Of a stretch of DNA of 64,000 bases, positions 1,137 to 56,598 are shown one piece after another. How positions within the stretch are numbered: position 1 is the first letter of the stretch; each line of letters starts with the position of its first letter. The stretch covers positions 1-64,000 of the forward strand of contig JAOTTS010000004.1 in NCBI GenBank assembly GCA_029864335.1, written 5' to 3'. The position numbers and the translations under genes were made by a program. The notes below the pieces were generated by a model. It worked only from the letters and a program-made list of their open reading frames with translations, ran no database searches and was not told the DNA's origin. The DNA is from Candidatus Nitrosopumilus sp. GTDB lineage: Archaea; Thermoproteota; Nitrososphaeria; Nitrososphaerales; Nitrosopumilaceae.

Positions 1137-1260
1137 CCCAAGCTAGCTCAGCCTGGTAGAGCTTCCGGCTGTAGTTGTTGGCTTTAGATGGCTGACCGAA
1201 TAACAGCATATCAGGCATACAGAAACCGGGTTGTCGAAGGTTCAATTCCTTCGCTTGGGA
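1137..1260 (+). tRNA. tRNA-Tyr (anticodon GTA) with a 50-nt intron
   Basis: Acceptor stem CCCAAGC (1137-1143) pairs with GCTTGGG (1253-1259). The D arm is 1146-1162. The anticodon stem TCCGG (1164-1168) pairs with CCGGG (1226-1230). Anticodon GTA lies at 1171-1173, and the T arm is GAAGG-TTCAATT-CCTTC (1236-1252). The discriminator is A1260 and a genomic CCA follows at 1261-1263. A C1-G72 first pair is the known archaeal/eukaryal Tyr identity feature and fits. The intron spans about 1175-1224, between positions 37 and 38, the canonical archaeal site. The EndA encoded at 55055-55618 would be the splicing enzyme. Exact intron ends are inferred from stem pairing. Confidence 0.9.
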
Positions 1261-17070: not shown

Positions 17071-17106
17071 TTTTTCAATAATACTATATTCAAGTCATAA
17101 TAAAAT

Positions 17107-17206
17107 GCAGAGGGTGGGATTTGAACCCACGAACTCCTGAGAGAAGGGATTTCCTATTATGAAGATCTTGAGTCCCTCTCGGTTGACCGGGCTTCGATAC
17201 CTCTGC
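17107..17206 (-). tRNA. tRNA-Leu (anticodon CAA) with a 16-nt intron
   Basis: Read on the minus strand, the acceptor stem GCAGAGG (17206-17200) pairs with CCTCTGC (17113-17107). The T arm is GTGGG-TTCAAAT-CCCAC. The anticodon stem AGGGA/TCCCT encloses CTCAAGA with anticodon CAA. The long variable arm (TCTCTCAGGAG) is the class II feature expected for Leu. A 16-nt intron at about 17151-17166 lies after position 37. The discriminator is A (17106); no CCA is encoded. Confidence 0.92.
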
Positions 17207-17325: not shown

Positions 17326-17640
17326 ATGGCAGAATTCATACCAATATCACAAGCAAAAAAAATGCGAAGTGGAGTCAATGTAAACGCCGAAGTAAAAAGC
17401 AAAGGAGATCCAAGAACTGTAAATCTAAAAAGTGGAGGAACAGTAGATGTCTGCGATGCAATCATATCTAACGGTGAAACTGAAGATGACCAAATGAAAC
17501 TCACATTGTGGGGTGACGACATTAAAGCGGTCAATGTTGGAGATACCGTTGTGATCACAAACGGATACACAAATGAGTTCAAAGGTGAAGTATCTCTAAC
17601 CAAAGGTAAATTTGGTCAGATGGAAATAAATCCTCAATAA
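17326..17640 (+). CDS. Single-stranded DNA-binding OB-fold protein
   Basis: 104 aa, one OB fold like crenarchaeal/thaumarchaeal SSB. The N-terminal strand region GVNVNAEVKSKGDPRTVNLK, then ISNGETEDDQMKLTLWGDD and VGDTVVITNGYTNEFKGEVS, match RPA/SSB OB domains. It lacks the long acidic tail of Sulfolobus SSB. Expected role: protection of ssDNA in replication and repair. It starts at ATG 17326. Confidence 0.85.
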   Translation: MAEFIPISQAKKMRSGVNVNAEVKSKGDPRTVNLKSGGTVDVCDAIISNGETEDDQMKLTLWGDDIKAVNVGDTVVITNGYTNEFKGEVSLTKGKFGQMEINPQ

Positions 17641-17732
17641 GCAAATTACATTAAAAATTAATTTTATTTTCTATATCAGATAGTTGTAACTGTAGTTAAT
17701 TAGAAACTAAAGAATTCATGAAAATTTAGATT

Positions 17733-17856
17733 CTAAGAAGCAAGGTTCAGGATGGTTTGTATTACTTCAATGACTTTTTTGGAATTATTAGAAGAATCTT
17801 CTTGGATTTGAAGTATTTTTGTTTTGTAATAGGTGATTGGAAGTTTAGAATCCGTC
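17733..17856 (-). pseudogene. Short orphan reading frame, possible C-terminal relic
   Basis: A minus-strand open frame of about 40 codons with no start codon, ending at TAG 17733-17735. It reads protein-like (SKLPITYYKTKILQIQEDSS, then a helix ending in IQTILNLAS). No family recognised. It is the only structure I see in 17641-17907, which is otherwise AT-rich spacer between the SSB gene and the HNH-cas1 locus. Confidence 0.3.
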
Positions 17857-17907
17857 TAAACTACATCAAAAGTTTCAACTACAGATCTATTATCACTTAG
17901 ACAAGGA

Positions 17908-17997
17908 ATGGTAAGAATTGCTCAAGATGACAAAAAAATTCTTGAGTTTATTCTATCCGAATTGTTACCAAAAAAGAAATCAATGAAAAAGGAATAA
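17908..17997 (+). CDS. Possible 29-aa leader ORF of the HNH-cas1 locus
   Basis: ATG at 17908 to TAA at 17995-17997; peptide MVRIAQDDKKILEF then a Lys-rich end. The same frame is open upstream to 17860 and also looks coding, so this may be the tail of a truncated gene instead. It ends 7 bases before the HNH frame. No function can be assigned. Confidence 0.3.
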   Translation: MVRIAQDDKKILEFILSELLPKKKSMKKE

Positions 17998-18004
17998 GAG
18001 CATC

Positions 18005-18219
18005 ATGGTAAAACGCAAGAGATTCAATCAAACTGCACTTCTCAAATATCTGGATGCAAAGTGCAAGAGATGTAATGTTAGTGCAAAAAAATGGATTTAA
18101 CAATTCATCACAAAAATCATGATTCATCTGATACAGATTGGAAAAACATTGTAATTTACTGTAGAGAATGCCATAACATCGTAGAAGGAACCAGTAAAAA
18201 GAAGAGTCAAATGCGATAG
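18005..18219 (+). pseudogene. HNH nuclease-like gene, frameshifted in an A-run
   Basis: Two frames make one small HNH protein. The first (18005-18100) gives the zinc knuckle CKRCNVSAKK; the second, from about 18091, gives MDLTIHHKNHD and IVIYCRECHNIVEG. Together they form C-x2-C ... IHHxNHD ... C-x2-C-H, the complete HNH/zinc layout in about 71 residues. The join is in a run of seven A (18085-18091); eight would restore the frame. It ends at TAG 18217-18219, one base before the cas1 start. Frameshift decay, slippage or sequence error are all possible. Confidence 0.65.
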
Positions 18220-18220
18220 A

Positions 18221-19192
18221 TTGACTCTACGAGGAAAGAAAAATCACTATAACGTAAAACTGCTCCGAGGTTACGGAGTTTCAATTTCTTTGAAAAACAA
18301 CAAGATAGTGCTGCGAAATGGCCGGGACATATTCTCCGGAGTCTCGGATGTCGAGGAATGGTTTGTGACAGGGATTCCCTATGAGAAGATTGTCGTTTCG
18401 GGGAAAGGATATCTGTCCACTGAGGCAATCAGGCTGCTAAATGAGAATAACAAGAACGTCATTCTGACTGACACGTACGGTCATCTGATATCTTTCATCA
18501 ACGGTGGAATGCAGTCTTTTACCGGTACAAAACACAGGATTGCCCAATATGATGGGTTTAGAAATCCTGAGATTTGCAAGCAACTATCCAAAAAGACAGT
18601 TCATCAAAAGATAGAATCGGAAATCAGATTCTTGAAGATGACTGAAAATGACTCAGTCAAAGAAGGGATTTCAAAATTAGAGAAATACCGAGAGGATTTA
18701 AAATTCTCTGATCATGGGGCAATCGAGGCTAAAGTGGGCAGAATCTATTTCAGAGAATTTGCAAAACTGATTCCTTCAAGGTATGGATTTGAATCACGCA
18801 ACCAACTAGGCACGGGAAATTCCAAACGGCGCGCAGGTGACGTGATTAACGGACTCCTCAACTACGGATATACTGTTCTTGCAGGGGAAATCTCAAAGTT
18901 TGTCTGCGGGTTTGGGCTGGATCCCTACTATGGCTTCATGCACAAGCCCCATACTGGATTTCAGCCCCTGGTGTATGATATCATGGAGCCGTTTAGGTGG
19001 CTAGTTGATTATTCTGTATGGAAGATTGCAAACAACAAGGAGAAGCGGAATAGAATCAAACTCAAGGAATTCGTGTTTACGAAAAATGGCTCGGTAGTAT
19101 TAGATGAGAATTTGATAAGGCGATTCCTGGAGAGATTGAGAGAACATTTCAGATGGAGCGAGAATACAAGTTTAATTCGGGCAGGAAGATGA
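18221..19192 (+). CDS. cas1: Cas1-family integrase/endonuclease, isolated (cas1-solo)
   Basis: 323 aa. The N-terminal beta domain contains LLRGYGVSISLKNNKIVLRN. The alpha-helical catalytic domain has EAKVGRIYF (catalytic Glu), GFMHKPHTGFQPLVYDIMEP (His and Asp) and the following FR, all conserved in Cas1. Cas1 integrates DNA at CRISPR arrays (with Cas2) or, in casposons, transposon ends. No cas2, no other cas gene and no repeat array is in the window. The gene is visibly richer in G+C than its neighbours, suggesting transfer. It starts with TTG at 18221, one base after an HNH frame. No polB and no terminal inverted repeats were found by eye. Confidence 0.88.
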   Translation: MTLRGKKNHYNVKLLRGYGVSISLKNNKIVLRNGRDIFSGVSDVEEWFVTGIPYEKIVVSGKGYLSTEAIRLLNENNKNVILTDTYGHLISFINGGMQSFTGTKHRIAQYDGFRNPEICKQLSKKTVHQKIESEIRFLKMTENDSVKEGISKLEKYREDLKFSDHGAIEAKVGRIYFREFAKLIPSRYGFESRNQLGTGNSKRRAGDVINGLLNYGYTVLAGEISKFVCGFGLDPYYGFMHKPHTGFQPLVYDIMEPFRWLVDYSVWKIANNKEKRNRIKLKEFVFTKNGSVVLDENLIRRFLERLREHFRWSENTSLIRAGR

Positions 19193-19296
19193 AAAATGGA
19201 ATGTCAATGTGCCAGGAAATAACTATTGTAAAAATCTTCATAGAATCAACATTGAATAAAAAAAATAGTTAAACCTAAGAAATAATTTATGAAAAT

Positions 19297-20082
19297 ATGG
19301 GTAATGATAATGATTTAGAATACATTCTTTTGAGAAATTATTTAGAATTAACAAATACATCTAGAGGATTATTGCTTAGAATGGATTTTGATGCATTAGA
19401 AAAAATTGAATCTAATACATGGTTTCATAAATTTGAAGGTGAAGACATTGAGAAAGGAAAAAGAATCGTAAAAAGTATAATCCAACAAGAAATAATTGCC
19501 AAAATTATGATCTACATTGAAGATTTAGCAATAATTTCAGAATCATTGTCAAGAGGAGTAAACTATTACACATTATTAGATAAAAAAGAAACTCCTGAAG
19601 GAATTCAAGATGTAGGAGATATTTTAAAAGAATTCTTTGAAAGTATAGATAAATTATCTCAAAAAGATTTTTCAAAAATTATGAGTCTTGGAAATCCGGA
19701 AGGATATGCCATTAATGGCGAAGAAAAACAATTACTGGAAAAAGCATTAGAGTTTGAGAAAGAAGAATATACAAAAACTTTTAAAAAATTGAAAGACTTT
19801 GGGACAGAACATCATGCAGTATTCAGAAGATACAAACATGCAGGATTTTATTCAAAAAAGGACGGTTATGCAATTTGCACTGTTGAAGTTAAAAAAAATA
19901 CGTTGAATTTGTGTTATTCTGTAACAAAAAAGGACATTATTACAGTAAATTCATTTGTTAAAGACTTGACGGGAAAGGGACATTGGGGGATTGGTAATTA
20001 CATGTCAGAAATAAAAACTGAAATGGACATAGAAAAATCTATTCCTCTGATAGAAAAAGTTCATAATTTTAAAGTAAAATAA
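19297..20082 (+). CDS. Hypothetical protein, 261 aa
   Basis: Soluble, mostly helical protein without recognisable family. Residues 55-110 form long amphipathic helices; residues 180-250 look beta-rich (GYAICTVEVKKNTLNLCYSV). The Cys and His content is not patterned as a metal site. It starts with ATG at 19297 after a TTAAACCTAAG stretch. It follows cas1 on the same strand but 104 bp away and with ordinary AT-rich codon use, so a functional link is uncertain. Confidence 0.6.
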   Translation: MGNDNDLEYILLRNYLELTNTSRGLLLRMDFDALEKIESNTWFHKFEGEDIEKGKRIVKSIIQQEIIAKIMIYIEDLAIISESLSRGVNYYTLLDKKETPEGIQDVGDILKEFFESIDKLSQKDFSKIMSLGNPEGYAINGEEKQLLEKALEFEKEEYTKTFKKLKDFGTEHHAVFRRYKHAGFYSKKDGYAICTVEVKKNTLNLCYSVTKKDIITVNSFVKDLTGKGHWGIGNYMSEIKTEMDIEKSIPLIEKVHNFKVK

Positions 20083-20251
20083 TTTAAAAATCGATTAAAT
20101 CGACATACATAATTGTGTTTAAGAAACTTAGCTGAATGTCTCAATAATCATTTCAAAAATAAACTAGATCCTATCAATACAACTATTATTGAAATGTCTA
20201 TTTTTTGTTGATTGTCAATAAACTAGTTTACTCTTCAATAGCAAAATAAAA

Positions 20252-20569
20252 TTATTTTTTATTTTGTTTTGCTAAAAAATCCATAAACAGTTCTCCCTCA
20301 TATTCTACATAATCCTCTATTACTTTAGTTTCAATATCCTCTAGAAACTGAGTGTATACAGTTTCACGTTCATGCTTTAATGGAGGGGAGCAGAAACACA
20401 TCTCAGACCATTGGATTACGTTTGGTTCAGTTATCTTGGCACGCTTCATTGAATTTACAATCTCTTGTCCATCTGGCTTTTGATTTTGAATTGTTCCGTC
20501 AGTCAGTTTTTGATAAAATTCAGCTATTTTTTCTTCAATGTACCTAGCTTTAACTGAATAAATTGCCAC
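20252..20569 (-). CDS. Hypothetical protein, 105 aa
   Basis: Small acidic helical protein. It has a CFCSPPLKHERE motif at the middle that could be a metal or partner site, preceded by VIQWSEM. No signal peptide or membrane segment. It starts with ATG at 20569. No family recognised; it is flanked by AT-rich spacers (20083-20251, nothing seen). Confidence 0.5.
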   Translation of the reverse strand: MAIYSVKARYIEEKIAEFYQKLTDGTIQNQKPDGQEIVNSMKRAKITEPNVIQWSEMCFCSPPLKHERETVYTQFLEDIETKVIEDYVEYEGELFMDFLAKQNKK

Positions 20570-20671
20570 AAGTTTGTGTTGTATTGGATATTATTATTTT
20601 TAATTGATATTTTCAATTTAGTGCAAAATCTTGCGAATGACAAACCAGATCCAATCTTAAGACATACCTTT

Positions 20672-20706
20672 TGGAGATATATTATGAGCATAAGATTCCA
20701 ATACCG
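20672..20706 (+). promoter_or_regulatory. Conserved promoter-like block before SRPBCC gene, copy 1
   Basis: GGAGATATATTA lies about 25-34 bases upstream of the TTG start. The 34-base block aligns without gaps to the block before the paralogue at 56152, with about nine differences. An archaeal TATA-like box at this distance would give a leaderless transcript. Confidence 0.45.
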
Positions 20707-21153
20707 TTGAAAACATTTTATCATTCTTTTGCTGTAGATGCACCTATTGACAAGGTATGGGGTTTCTATACTGATTTACATCATTTAGAAATAATCACCC
20801 CCAAAAGATTAGATTTTAAGATAATAGAATCAAGCAGCAATAAAATAACACAGGGACAAACTGCCCATTTTTCAAGCAAGCTACTGACCAGAATGACCTG
20901 GAAAACCAAGATCACAGTCTGTAAACCATACACGTATGTTGATGAAATGAGCAATGCACTATTCAAACACTGGAGGCATACTCATGTTTTTCACAAGATA
21001 AATGAAAATCAAACCAAGGTAACAGACGAGGTTGAATTTGAATTGCAGTATGGATTTATTGGAAAAATGTTTGAATGGTATGCTCTAGATAAACTCAAAA
21101 AAATCTTTGCGCATAGACAACAGGCAACGATTGAATATTTGAGTAATCTTTGA
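20707..21153 (+). CDS. SRPBCC (START/polyketide cyclase-like) protein, copy 1
   Basis: 148 aa, helix-grip ligand-binding fold. It opens with FAVDAPIDKVWGFYTDLHHL, the typical SRPBCC start, and ends in a long C-terminal helix (MFEWYALDKLKKIFAHRQQA). I set the start at TTG 20707, because the paralogue at 56152-56598 begins at the equivalent TTG and has a stop just before it. The frame here is open upstream to 20671, so a longer form cannot be excluded. Ligand unknown; hydrophobic small molecules are usual. Confidence 0.8.
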   Translation: MKTFYHSFAVDAPIDKVWGFYTDLHHLEIITPKRLDFKIIESSSNKITQGQTAHFSSKLLTRMTWKTKITVCKPYTYVDEMSNALFKHWRHTHVFHKINENQTKVTDEVEFELQYGFIGKMFEWYALDKLKKIFAHRQQATIEYLSNL

Positions 21154-21268
21154 ACCATTTTAGAGTGTAAAATCCAGAGGCCTAAAATTTCAAGAATTAA
21201 CTATTTTTTAGAATAGTGTAAACTCTTTGCCCCTAAATTTCAAGGAATTTTATTATTTCAAAATAAAT

Positions 21269-22174
21269 TTACGCTGGGCTGATTACTGTCTCTTTTCTAC
21301 TCACAAGATAAACCCCAAGAATCATGATTCCTGCTGCTGCAATTTGATGCCAACCAATCTGTTCTGCCAAAAGTAGGGTAGACGCTATAAGACCAAATAC
21401 GGATGACATTGAAAATATTGTAATTGTTCTTACGGTACCTATTCTCTTTAGTCCCTGTAAGAAAAAATAAAGTGACGCTGCAAAACCAATAGAACCAAGC
21501 ATCAAGATTGGAATTATCTGGTCTACTTCGATGTTGATATCTACTCTGAATACCAATAATGCAATTGCAAATAGCATTACTCCTCCTATTGCAGATTTTA
21601 TCTGGACGATATTTGCAATATCCATTTTTTGTGCAAGGTATCTGCTCAGGTTGTTATCAAGTGCCCAAAACAACATAGATAAAATTAGCAACATATCCTT
21701 GTAATGAATATACTGTAAGCTAAAATCAGCAAAATCCAAATTAGTAGTTATGATTACCATACCAGATAGAACCAAAAGAATTGCAATCCATCCAACAAAT
21801 CTTAGTCTCTCTTTGAAAAACATCACTGCAAGTAAAACAGAAAAGAATACCTCGCCATTTACAATTAATGCAGCATCAGATGCACTTGCATGTGTCAATC
21901 CTGTAAAATACAAACTAGGTGCAATAACAGCACCGCAAATCGCTATTGAAAAAATCAACAAAAGATCTTTTCTTGTAATGTTTTTCTTTTTCTTTTGTGC
22001 AAAAGGACTCAAAGTAACAGCCGATATGATGTAAACCATAGATGCAAGCAAAATAGGATCAACCGAAGAAACAAGGGGCTTTGCTACAACGGATACCGAG
22101 CCAAACATGATGGCAGCCAAAACTGCAAACAAGTAACCAAGGCGTTGATTACTGTATTTTTGGGTCAAATCCAT
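21269..22174 (-). CDS. EamA/DMT family transporter
   Basis: 301 aa with ten predicted membrane segments in two five-helix EamA repeats (residues about 15-135 and 160-290). The motif SVSVVAKPLVSSVDPILLAS in helix 1 and the C-terminal AAAGIMILGVYLVSRKE are typical. Substrate is unknown; metabolite export is common for the family. Starts with ATG at 22174. The 300-bp spacer 22175-22473 holds no gene that I can see. Confidence 0.85.
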   Translation of the reverse strand: MDLTQKYSNQRLGYLFAVLAAIMFGSVSVVAKPLVSSVDPILLASMVYIISAVTLSPFAQKKKKNITRKDLLLIFSIAICGAVIAPSLYFTGLTHASASDAALIVNGEVFFSVLLAVMFFKERLRFVGWIAILLVLSGMVIITTNLDFADFSLQYIHYKDMLLILSMLFWALDNNLSRYLAQKMDIANIVQIKSAIGGVMLFAIALLVFRVDINIEVDQIIPILMLGSIGFAASLYFFLQGLKRIGTVRTITIFSMSSVFGLIASTLLLAEQIGWHQIAAAGIMILGVYLVSRKETVISPA

Positions 22175-22473
22175 GCCTTTAGAATTGCAGATTTGTTTAT
22201 TTTAAGTCAGAGTTGTTTTTTTGGCATTACTTTGTATGTACTTACAAAAATAGTGCAAAATCTTTGCCACTAACTATATCCCCATACATGTTGTACTTCC
22301 ATTCAAATTTGAACCAAATTATTTTAAGATCTAAAACTTTACGAGACGCGTCATATTATCAGGCATAAAACGGGGGATTTCTATTTTTTACTCTGTTAAT
22401 AAACTCGTTAACACTTATCAGTAGATTATGCATAACGGTGTAAATTAATTATGAATTTTTTCGGAGTTATTTC

Positions 22474-23082
22474 TCAATAACTTCTTTTATTGTTTTGATT
22501 ATTTTTCAAATCCACGAGCAGTACTATTGTTCCAATAACTGAAATAATTATTCCAAAAATAAGTAAAAATCCAGAGAGAGTAAGAACTAAAACCACATTC
22601 ATAATTGAGGAATCGGAATTTGATAGAGGATCAAAATTATCGGGATCTTCAGAAAACATTGCTAAAACATTAACATTTCTTGTTCCAATATTTTTAACTT
22701 TTAGATTTAATGTGTCAGATTGAGGAATTTCCAATATATCAAAATGAATAGATTCATTTTGAATAAAATCACCATAATCATTGCCAAAAATATTTGAAAT
22801 GTTTATTGATAATTTATCTCCAGGCTGATAATCAACTATTCCAATACCCCACATTAGTGGCACATCTGATGAAAATGTACTATAGGAAAAATAAGCAGAA
22901 TCATCAGACATGATTTGAATTTCATTTGTAATTTCATTAAACATTCCTTCAAGTAATGAATCAGAAAAATGGTTTATTTCAGAAATGTTATTTGGAACAA
23001 TTGAAGATACCATTGAAAGTGAGATTATTACTAATGCCAATCCCAGTGTAGAAATTATTGGACCACGTTTTTTCATAATCAT
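22474..23082 (-). CDS. Membrane-anchored extracytoplasmic protein
   Basis: 202 aa. The N-terminal hydrophobic segment ISTLGLALVIISLSMVSSIV (signal anchor) is followed by an outer beta-rich domain of about 125 residues. A second segment near the C-terminus (VVLVLTLSGFLLIFGIIISV) precedes a short basic tail. The layout predicts an extracellular loop held at both ends. Proteins of this type are frequent in thaumarchaea; no function known. Confidence 0.7.
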   Translation of the reverse strand: MIMKKRGPIISTLGLALVIISLSMVSSIVPNNISEINHFSDSLLEGMFNEITNEIQIMSDDSAYFSYSTFSSDVPLMWGIGIVDYQPGDKLSINISNIFGNDYGDFIQNESIHFDILEIPQSDTLNLKVKNIGTRNVNVLAMFSEDPDNFDPLSNSDSSIMNVVLVLTLSGFLLIFGIIISVIGTIVLLVDLKNNQNNKRSY

Positions 23083-56114: not shown

Positions 56115-56151
56115 TTAGGAGATATATTACAAGTGTAATATTTCAATATAG
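56115..56151 (+). promoter_or_regulatory. Conserved promoter-like block before SRPBCC gene, copy 2
   Basis: Equivalent to the block at 20672-20706; GGAGATATATTA is identical in both. It includes an in-frame TAG just before the TTG, which shows that translation starts at the TTG here. Confidence 0.45.
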
Positions 56152-56598
56152 TTGAAAACCTTTAATCATTTTTTTGTTGTAGACGCTTCCATTGACAAAG
56201 TATGGGATTTCTATACTGATTTACACCATTTACAAGTAATCACCCCAAAAAAGTTGGATTTCAAGATAATAGAGTCAAACAGTAATAAAATAACTCTGGG
56301 GCAAACTGCTTATTTTTCAAGCAAGTTACTGACTCGCATAACGTGGAAAACCAAAATTACAGCTTGTAAACCATATACATATGTAGATGAAATGAGAAAT
56401 GCGTTATTCAAACGCTGGAGGCATACTCATGTTTTTCATAAAATAAACGAAAATCAGACAAGGGTAACAGATGAGATTGAATTTGAACTGCAGTATGGAT
56501 TTATTGGAAAAATGTTTGAATGGTATGCTCTAGATAAACTCAAAAAAATCTTTGCATATAGGCAACAGGCAACGATTAAAGCTTTGAGCAATATTTGA
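56152..56598 (+). CDS. SRPBCC protein, copy 2
   Basis: 148 aa, same length and largely the same sequence as the gene at 20707-21153; for example both have the segment KLLTRxTWKTKIT, with I here and M in copy 1. Opening FVVDASIDKVWDFYTDLHHL. The start TTG is fixed by the preceding in-frame TAG. Divergence is spread along the gene with no frameshift, so both copies seem under constraint. Copy 2 lies in the decayed island. Confidence 0.78.
   Translation: MKTFNHFFVVDASIDKVWDFYTDLHHLQVITPKKLDFKIIESNSNKITLGQTAYFSSKLLTRITWKTKITACKPYTYVDEMRNALFKRWRHTHVFHKINENQTRVTDEIEFELQYGFIGKMFEWYALDKLKKIFAYRQQATIKALSNI

What the first reader, a model, noticed from the sequence alone, without database searches (positions are those of the whole stretch)
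17908..19192. Isolated cas1 gene paired with an HNH nuclease, no CRISPR array or cas2
The Cas1 catalytic Glu, His and Asp regions are intact, yet no repeat array, cas2, cas4 or effector is seen in 64 kb. An HNH frame ends one base before it, and a possible 29-aa ORF precedes that. HNH partners are known in some casposons (Cas1-based transposons), and casposons are known in thaumarchaea. Here PolB and terminal inverted repeats are missing by eye. The gene is GC-richer than its neighbours. Options: a reduced casposon, a domesticated casposase, or a Cas1-HNH unit with another role.
Basis: partly seen in the sequence, partly recalled or inferred. Interest (0 to 1): 0.8.

Follow-up and report, generated by a model that had tools for sequence, protein, structure and literature searches.

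The report
Decayed casposon remnant in ammonia-oxidising archaeon
The lone cas1 gene is the broken transposase gene of an old casposon (a jumping element that uses a Cas1 enzyme) stranded in a Nitrosopumilus-type genome, and the nuclease gene beside it is one of many interchangeable passenger genes, so it is not a new Cas1-nuclease system.

Summary
The cas1 gene at 18221-19192 is real, but it is a casposase, not a CRISPR Cas1. In a tree it falls inside the family-1 casposase clade of Nitrosopumilaceae (100/99), apart from CRISPR Cas1 (96/92). The genome has no Cas2, RAMP or Cas7 match. Both genes of the pair are broken: the HNH gene lies in two frames, and the cas1 C-terminus is displaced into ORF 19153-19272. 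The pair sits in a 4.8-kb insertion (17641-22480) that is empty in close relatives and flanked by an 8-bp direct repeat. One casposon terminal repeat survives at 22350-22388, next to a typical EF-2-like target sequence. The partner repeat and PolB are not found. HNH is cargo: in 61 related loci the gene ending at the cas1 start belongs to 48 different families, 34 of them with the same 4-bp overlap. Verdict: a decayed, PolB-less family-1 casposon, a known kind. Beyond the window, three patterns not in the casposon papers read here emerged: this hypervariable slot, intact PolB-less casposons with terminal repeats, and about 45 "terminal repeat-cargo-cas1 stub" scars across the family.

The parts
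17326..17640 (+). Host gene (104 aa, OB-fold/SSB-like) at whose 3' end the insertion lies; not part of the element
   Evidence: Found in 86 of 95 genus genomes, up to 99% identical; only weak Pfam match to Ssb-like OB
17633..17640 (.). Left copy of the 8-bp direct repeat CTCAATAA (candidate target-site duplication; 11 of 15 bases match over 15 bp)
   Evidence: Overlap of the two flank alignments with the empty site of G183; checked
17641..22480 (.). 4.8-kb insertion absent from close relatives
   Evidence: G183, G092, G074, G030, G104, G080, G046 and G114 carry the two flanking genes adjacent
17641..17786 (+). Possible decayed left end: 63% inverted similarity to 20135-20272; weak
   Evidence: Score reached by 1 of 500 dinucleotide shuffles; not recognised by the terminal-repeat model
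18005..18219 (+). Broken HNH nuclease gene (cargo slot), two frames: 18005-18100 and 18091-18219, shifted at the A7 run 18085-18091
   Evidence: 60% identical homologue in G111
18221..19192 (+). cas1: family-1 casposase gene, catalytic residues kept, C-terminal frameshift near 19149-19152
19153..19272 (+). Displaced C-terminal frame of the casposase (39 aa)
   Evidence: Matches positions 311-345 of a profile of 15 full-length family-1 casposases, E 1.7e-13
19297..20082 (+). 261-aa ORF of unknown function, probable cargo
   Evidence: No Pfam match; distant homologues in 5 of 95 genus genomes
20252..20569 (-). 105-aa ORF; residues 1-89 are 84% identical to another locus of the same contig
20671..21153 (+). 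Polyketide-cyclase/SRPBCC-like gene, 84% identical to a second copy at 56119-56595
21269..22174 (-). EamA-family transporter gene, probable cargo
   Evidence: Pfam EamA E 1.2e-42
22350..22388 (-). Casposon terminal inverted repeat (distal end), outer end at 22388
   Evidence: Terminal-repeat model: 25.4 bits, E 8e-7 in the window, 2.4e-5 in the whole genome; an earlier profile gave E 2.4e-5
22389..22416 (-). EF-2-3'-end-like target sequence (GTTAACGAGTTTATTAACAGAGTAA) outside the terminal repeat
   Evidence: Same flank found at intact casposons and solitary terminal repeats
22473..22480 (.). Right copy of the 8-bp direct repeat CTCAATAA

Best explanation
This is the remnant of a family-1 casposon, a transposon whose integrase (casposase) is a Cas1 homologue. 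When active, the casposase would have bound the two terminal repeats and inserted the element by staggered cuts, as shown for other casposases. The copy here sits at the 3' end of an SSB-like gene. Its layout was: left repeat (now unrecognisable), passenger gene (HNH) placed directly before cas1, further cargo (261-aa ORF, SRPBCC-like gene, EamA transporter), right repeat at 22388. It has no PolB and is no longer mobile on its own: the casposase and HNH genes are frameshifted and one end is lost. Shown: clade, frameshifts, insertion, one terminal repeat, absence of a Cas2 match. Inferred: past mobility, that the cargo belongs to the same element, and immobility today. The HNH gene is a passenger, not a working partner of Cas1.
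For: Tree: window Cas1 within the family-1 casposase clade 100/99, casposases apart from CRISPR Cas1 96/92. Best solved relative is 6opm, which I know as the M. mazei casposase; the PDB table calls it only Cas1. Intact relatives (54-63% identical Cas1) lie in elements with terminal repeats, some with 78-179-bp repeats at 99-100% identity. Terminal repeat with EF-2-like flank at 22350-22416. Empty site in many relatives and 8-bp direct repeat. Frameshifts. No Cas2, RAMP or Cas7 match genome-wide. The genome holds other decayed casposons: C49, 2.65 kb, with both terminal repeats and a Cas1-PolB deletion fusion, and only fragments of casposon PolB. HNH as cargo: 48 families in 61 loci at that slot.
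Against: The left terminal repeat is not recognisable. The repeat flanking the insertion is only 8 bp exact (11 of 15), and it does not abut the surviving terminal repeat (about 56 bp lie between it and the target-like flank), so the last insertion event may have been of another kind. An integrase-like fragment lies at the same site in G152 (assigned by eye). Unexplained: an EF-2-like motif at 20213-20235, the inverted similarity 17641/20272, and two segments duplicated elsewhere in the contig suggest a composite island. Frameshifts could in principle be assembly errors.
Confidence: 0.86

Rival explanations
1. Domesticated casposase: the cas1 gene was kept by the host for another DNA function, with or without HNH.
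For: Catalytic residues kept and 311 codons open without a stop.
Against: Locus empty in close relatives; C-terminus frameshifted; HNH broken; other own copies also decayed.
Confidence: 0.04
2. The HNH and Cas1 form a functional two-gene unit (HNH helps casposase cleavage or excision) and the frameshifts are sequencing errors or programmed.
For: A 60%-identical HNH precedes cas1 in G111, with a second HNH between them; HNH is a core gene in family-2 casposons (PMC4046053) and occurs in NitNF5-C1 (PMC6563490); one shift is at an A7 run.
Against: In family 1 the slot holds 48 families in 61 loci; two separate shifts within 1.1 kb, one not in a long homopolymer.
Confidence: 0.06
3. Orphan adaptation gene of a lost CRISPR-Cas system.
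For: CRISPR systems with cas1-cas2-cas4 and arrays exist in other genomes of the family.
Against: Those Cas1 proteins fall in the CRISPR group, the window Cas1 does not; no Cas2, RAMP or Cas7 match in the genome.
Confidence: 0.01
4. The 4.8-kb island was brought in by another element (for example a tyrosine-integrase element using the SSB-like gene 3' end) and carries casposon debris as passengers.
For: Direct repeat does not abut the terminal repeat; an integrase-like ORF lies at the same site in G152 (by eye); two island segments are duplicated elsewhere in the contig.
Against: No integrase recognised among the ORFs of the window insertion; the distal terminal repeat faces cas1 at a distance (3.1 kb) within or near the range of PolB-less casposons.
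Confidence: 0.25

Closest known systems
Family-1 casposons of Nitrosopumilus (NitAR1-C1, NitAR2-C1, NitNF5-C1/C2; Krupovic 2014 PMC4046053, 2019 PMC6563490)
   Same: Casposase clade, host group, EF-2-like target flank, variable cargo including an HNH in NitNF5-C1
   Different: No protein-primed PolB, only one recognisable terminal repeat, inserted at an SSB-like gene instead of EF-2, frameshifted casposase
PolB-less casposons seen here in G068 (L057, 4.1 kb) and G048 (L058, 3.15 kb)
   Same: TIR-cargo-cas1-cargo-TIR, no PolB
   Different: These have both terminal repeats and an open casposase gene; the window copy is decayed
Family-2 casposons (AciBoo-C1, M. mazei; NitNCS1-C1 in thaumarchaea)
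   Same: HNH present; family-2-type Cas1 pieces also lie in this genome as separate copies (C33, C2, C38, C52, C50)
   Different: Family-2 casposases have a C-terminal extension and form another clade; their HNH is a core gene, here it is cargo

Membership tests
Casposon (family 1) | Cas1 in the family-1 casposase clade, not in CRISPR clades | tested here: met
   100/99 support, 16 rows
Casposon (family 1) | Compact Cas1 with conserved catalytic residues | tested here: met
   Residues aligned to 6opm and 4n06, but the C-terminus is frameshifted
Casposon (family 1) | Terminal inverted repeats at both ends | tested here: inconclusive
   Distal end met; proximal end not recognisable, only weak inverted similarity
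Casposon (family 1) | Target-site duplication of about 14-15 bp | tested here: inconclusive
   8 bp exact, 11 of 15 at the insertion borders, not adjoining the surviving terminal repeat
Casposon (family 1) | Protein-primed PolB gene | tested here: not met
   No PolB in the insertion; own genome has only fragments at C49, C31 and C2. Hence filed as a remnant with a family-1 casposase, not as a complete family-1 casposon
CRISPR-Cas adaptation module | cas2 and a repeat array | tested here: not met
   No Cas2 match in the genome; no array in 202 kb scanned; rest of the genome not scanned for arrays
CRISPR-Cas adaptation module | Cas1 in a CRISPR clade | tested here: not met
Stable Cas1-HNH two-gene unit | HNH neighbour conserved next to cas1 | tested here: not met
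   48 families in 61 loci; a homologue found in G111 only, with a second HNH gene between it and cas1
Casposon | Integration activity of the casposase | not testable with these tools
   Needs biochemistry

The most novel reading that the evidence does not exclude
Family-1 casposons of Nitrosopumilaceae act as gene couriers. One slot, between the proximal terminal repeat and the casposase start, holds an interchangeable gene whose stop codon is usually supplied by the first four bases of cas1 (34 of 61). PolB-less versions with both terminal repeats exist. After decay, 'terminal repeat-cargo-first 20-40 codons of cas1' scars stay behind at EF-2 and other gene ends in many species, marking host genes delivered this way. 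The recurring break near cas1 codon 30 could be a real recombination or deletion site instead of a detection effect.
Probability: 0.4. Interest if true: 0.55.

Novelty: new member of a known kind. Interest (0 to 1): 0.33.

Why it matters
The window locus itself is ordinary: it removes a candidate 'Cas1-HNH system'. It gives an example of casposon arrival (empty in sister species) and decay in an ammonia-oxidising archaeon. The comparative data around it suggest that casposons, usually discussed as ancestors of CRISPR adaptation, have been a frequent route for single-gene delivery in these archaea, and give a recognisable tag (terminal repeat plus cas1 stub) with which to count such events.

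Tried and rejected
Terminal-repeat motif search by fixed strings near cas1 found nothing; the profile and the sequence model found one. Idea that the isolated hits to Cas1 residues 1-33 are terminal repeats overlapping the gene: rejected, the terminal repeat lies 110-1500 bp upstream. Idea that the stubs are complete cassettes with target duplications on both sides: no duplication on the far side. Short tandem repeats in family-2 elements first looked CRISPR-like; those inside genes are probably coding repeats. PolB hit at C35 judged by eye to be a cellular PolB fragment. Search of plasmids and phages gave only CRISPR-type or distant Cas1. Search for papers on non-autonomous casposons or casposon cargo gave nothing specific; most subscription papers and preprints are not in the library, so novelty of the cargo slot is unproven.

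Full report
Observation. ORF 18221-19192 encodes a Cas1 of 323 aa (Pfam Cas_Cas1 E 1.5e-45; NCBIfam cas1 143 bits). Glu169, His241 and Asp253/Glu256 align with the active sites of 6opm and 4n06. Upstream, HNH-coding sequence is present but in two frames, 18005-18100 and 18091-18219, displaced at an A7 run; only the second part reaches the Pfam HNH threshold. The 29-aa ORF has no support. cas1 also carries a frameshift at about 19149-19152: a profile of 15 full-length relatives (354 positions) matches frame A up to position 312 and continues at 311-345 in ORF 19153-19272 with E 1.7e-13. Both genes of the 'pair' are therefore broken, unless the assembly is wrong twice.

Genome context. The window is C44 of a 1.95-Mb, 58-contig genome (95.6% complete). 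It has seven Cas1 places over the Pfam cut-off: the window copy, a truncated copy at C49, and five pieces of a second type at C33, C2, C38, C52 and C50, some of them cut by contig ends; one search adds a stub at C45. There is no Cas2 match, no RAMP match and no Cas7/DevR match, while controls ring. A simple array scan over 202 kb of own sequence found none, and found the arrays in five control loci. Casposon-type PolB is present only as fragments, at C49, C31 and C2.

Family. In a tree of 43 Cas1 proteins the window Cas1 lies with 15 family-1 casposases at 100/99. These join family-2 casposases plus 6opm, which I take to be the M. mazei casposase (96/92), apart from 16 CRISPR Cas1 proteins; those taken from plasmids and from several family loci have an adjacent Cas2. 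The second type in this genome matches the family-2 casposases, which group with 6opm (99/98). In an L113 copy I read an HNH and a PolB nearby by eye.

Element anatomy in relatives. In a 200-genome sample of the family, 79 have a match. Intact elements have terminal repeats, for example 78 bp identical in L048 (7.8 kb, Cas1 and PolB, at the 3' end of EF-2) and 179 bp at 99% in L057. The terminal repeat begins TAAAAATRGWATCCCCCC and the outside flank is EF-2-3'-end-like. Where a proximal repeat is seen near a full-length cas1, it lies about 350-1250 bp from the cas1 start. Two elements with both repeats, L057 and L058, have no PolB. Terminal repeats often lie back to back 10 bp apart, as expected for tandem insertion at one target; tandem insertion at ef-2 has been described (PMC6563490).

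The window insertion. Eight genomes, best G183 at 90-94% DNA identity, carry the two flanking genes next to each other. The difference is 17641-22480, with CTCAATAA at both borders (11 of 15 over 15 bp). Inside, one terminal repeat is found at 22350-22388 (-), E 2.4e-5 in the whole genome, with the EF-2-like flank outside it at 22389-22416. The expected proximal repeat between 17641 and 17900 is not recognisable. A 63% inverted similarity between 17641-17786 and 20135-20272 exceeds all but 1 of 500 shuffles but does not look like the family repeat. The rest of the insertion holds a 261-aa ORF, a 105-aa ORF, an SRPBCC-like gene and an EamA transporter gene; two of them have 84%-identical copies elsewhere on the contig. 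The simplest reading is a PolB-less casposon of about 4.7 kb in decay; a composite island with casposon debris is not excluded.

HNH as cargo. Over 61 loci with a recognisable cas1 start and an ORF ending there, the upstream ORFs fall into 48 families; 34 end exactly 4 bp into cas1, because the conserved start (NTG AC) contains a TGA stop. A window-type HNH precedes cas1 in G111, with a second HNH between them. An HNH is also known in the family-1 casposon NitNF5-C1 (PMC6563490). So HNH next to cas1 is a draw from a variable slot, not a conserved partnership. The 61 include a few redundant views of the same place, so both numbers are slightly inflated.

Scars. About 45 loci in the family sample carry only the first 22-75 codons of cas1, most with a proximal terminal repeat upstream in the right orientation and few with a distal repeat. 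In 22 of them tested, no clear target duplication is found on the far side, with one possible exception (L163). The cargo gene is usually open. This looks like erosion of casposons after delivery of a cargo gene. Whether the cluster of ends near codon 30 is real or set by the detection limit is open. A search with the terminal-repeat model finds hits in 38 of 58 genus genomes, 30 in G221 alone, with a single full-length family-1 casposase there.

Limits. The own genome is a draft; about 4% may be missing. Mechanism of integration is taken from the literature on casposases, not tested here. The identity of 6opm as the M. mazei casposase is from my own knowledge; the PDB table calls it only Cas1. 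The absence of the cargo-slot pattern from the literature was checked only in the open library.

Noticed in passing
L009 17996-18303 (G000:C2 end): At least 7 near-identical tandem copies of a 43-bp unit with an internal palindrome (ATCGACAA...TTGTCGAT) start about 50 bp after a family-2 cas1 fragment and run to the contig end. Three of 25 family-2 loci have tandem arrays within 150 bp of cas1 (also L120 and L124, 22-bp units), 4 of 8 arrays in 317 kb.
   Followed up: partly
L125-L171 (about 45 loci in the family): Terminal repeat-cargo gene-first 22-75 codons of cas1, mostly without the distal repeat: casposon scars; L132 has three cas1 stubs in a row behind EF-2.
   Followed up: yes
L019-L041, L012, L125-L171: The gene ending at the cas1 start is hypervariable (48 families in 61 loci) with a stereotyped 4-bp overlap.
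   Followed up: yes
L057 9103-13191; L058 8668-11818; L065: Casposons without PolB: L057 and L058 have both terminal repeats; L065 shows one and no PolB.
   Followed up: partly
L245-L264 (G221): One genome of the same genus with 30 casposon terminal-repeat matches but one full-length family-1 casposase; several are back-to-back palindromes 10 bp apart.
   Followed up: partly
L012 6747-9398 (G000:C49): 2.65-kb decayed casposon with 47-bp terminal repeats and an internal deletion that fuses the Cas1 N-terminus in frame to a PolB piece.
   Followed up: partly
window 56119-56595 and 20671-21153; L015 5631-5897 and window 20252-20569: Two genes of the island have 84%-identical copies elsewhere on the same contig.
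   Followed up: no
window 1137-1260 and 17106-17206: Rfam finds two tRNA genes longer than usual (probably intron-bearing) that ARAGORN missed; one lies just upstream of the SSB-like gene.
   Followed up: no
L108 3198-3449 (G152): An 83-aa integrase-like ORF (by eye) lies at the same SSB-like gene 3' end, so this may be an integration hot spot.
   Followed up: no
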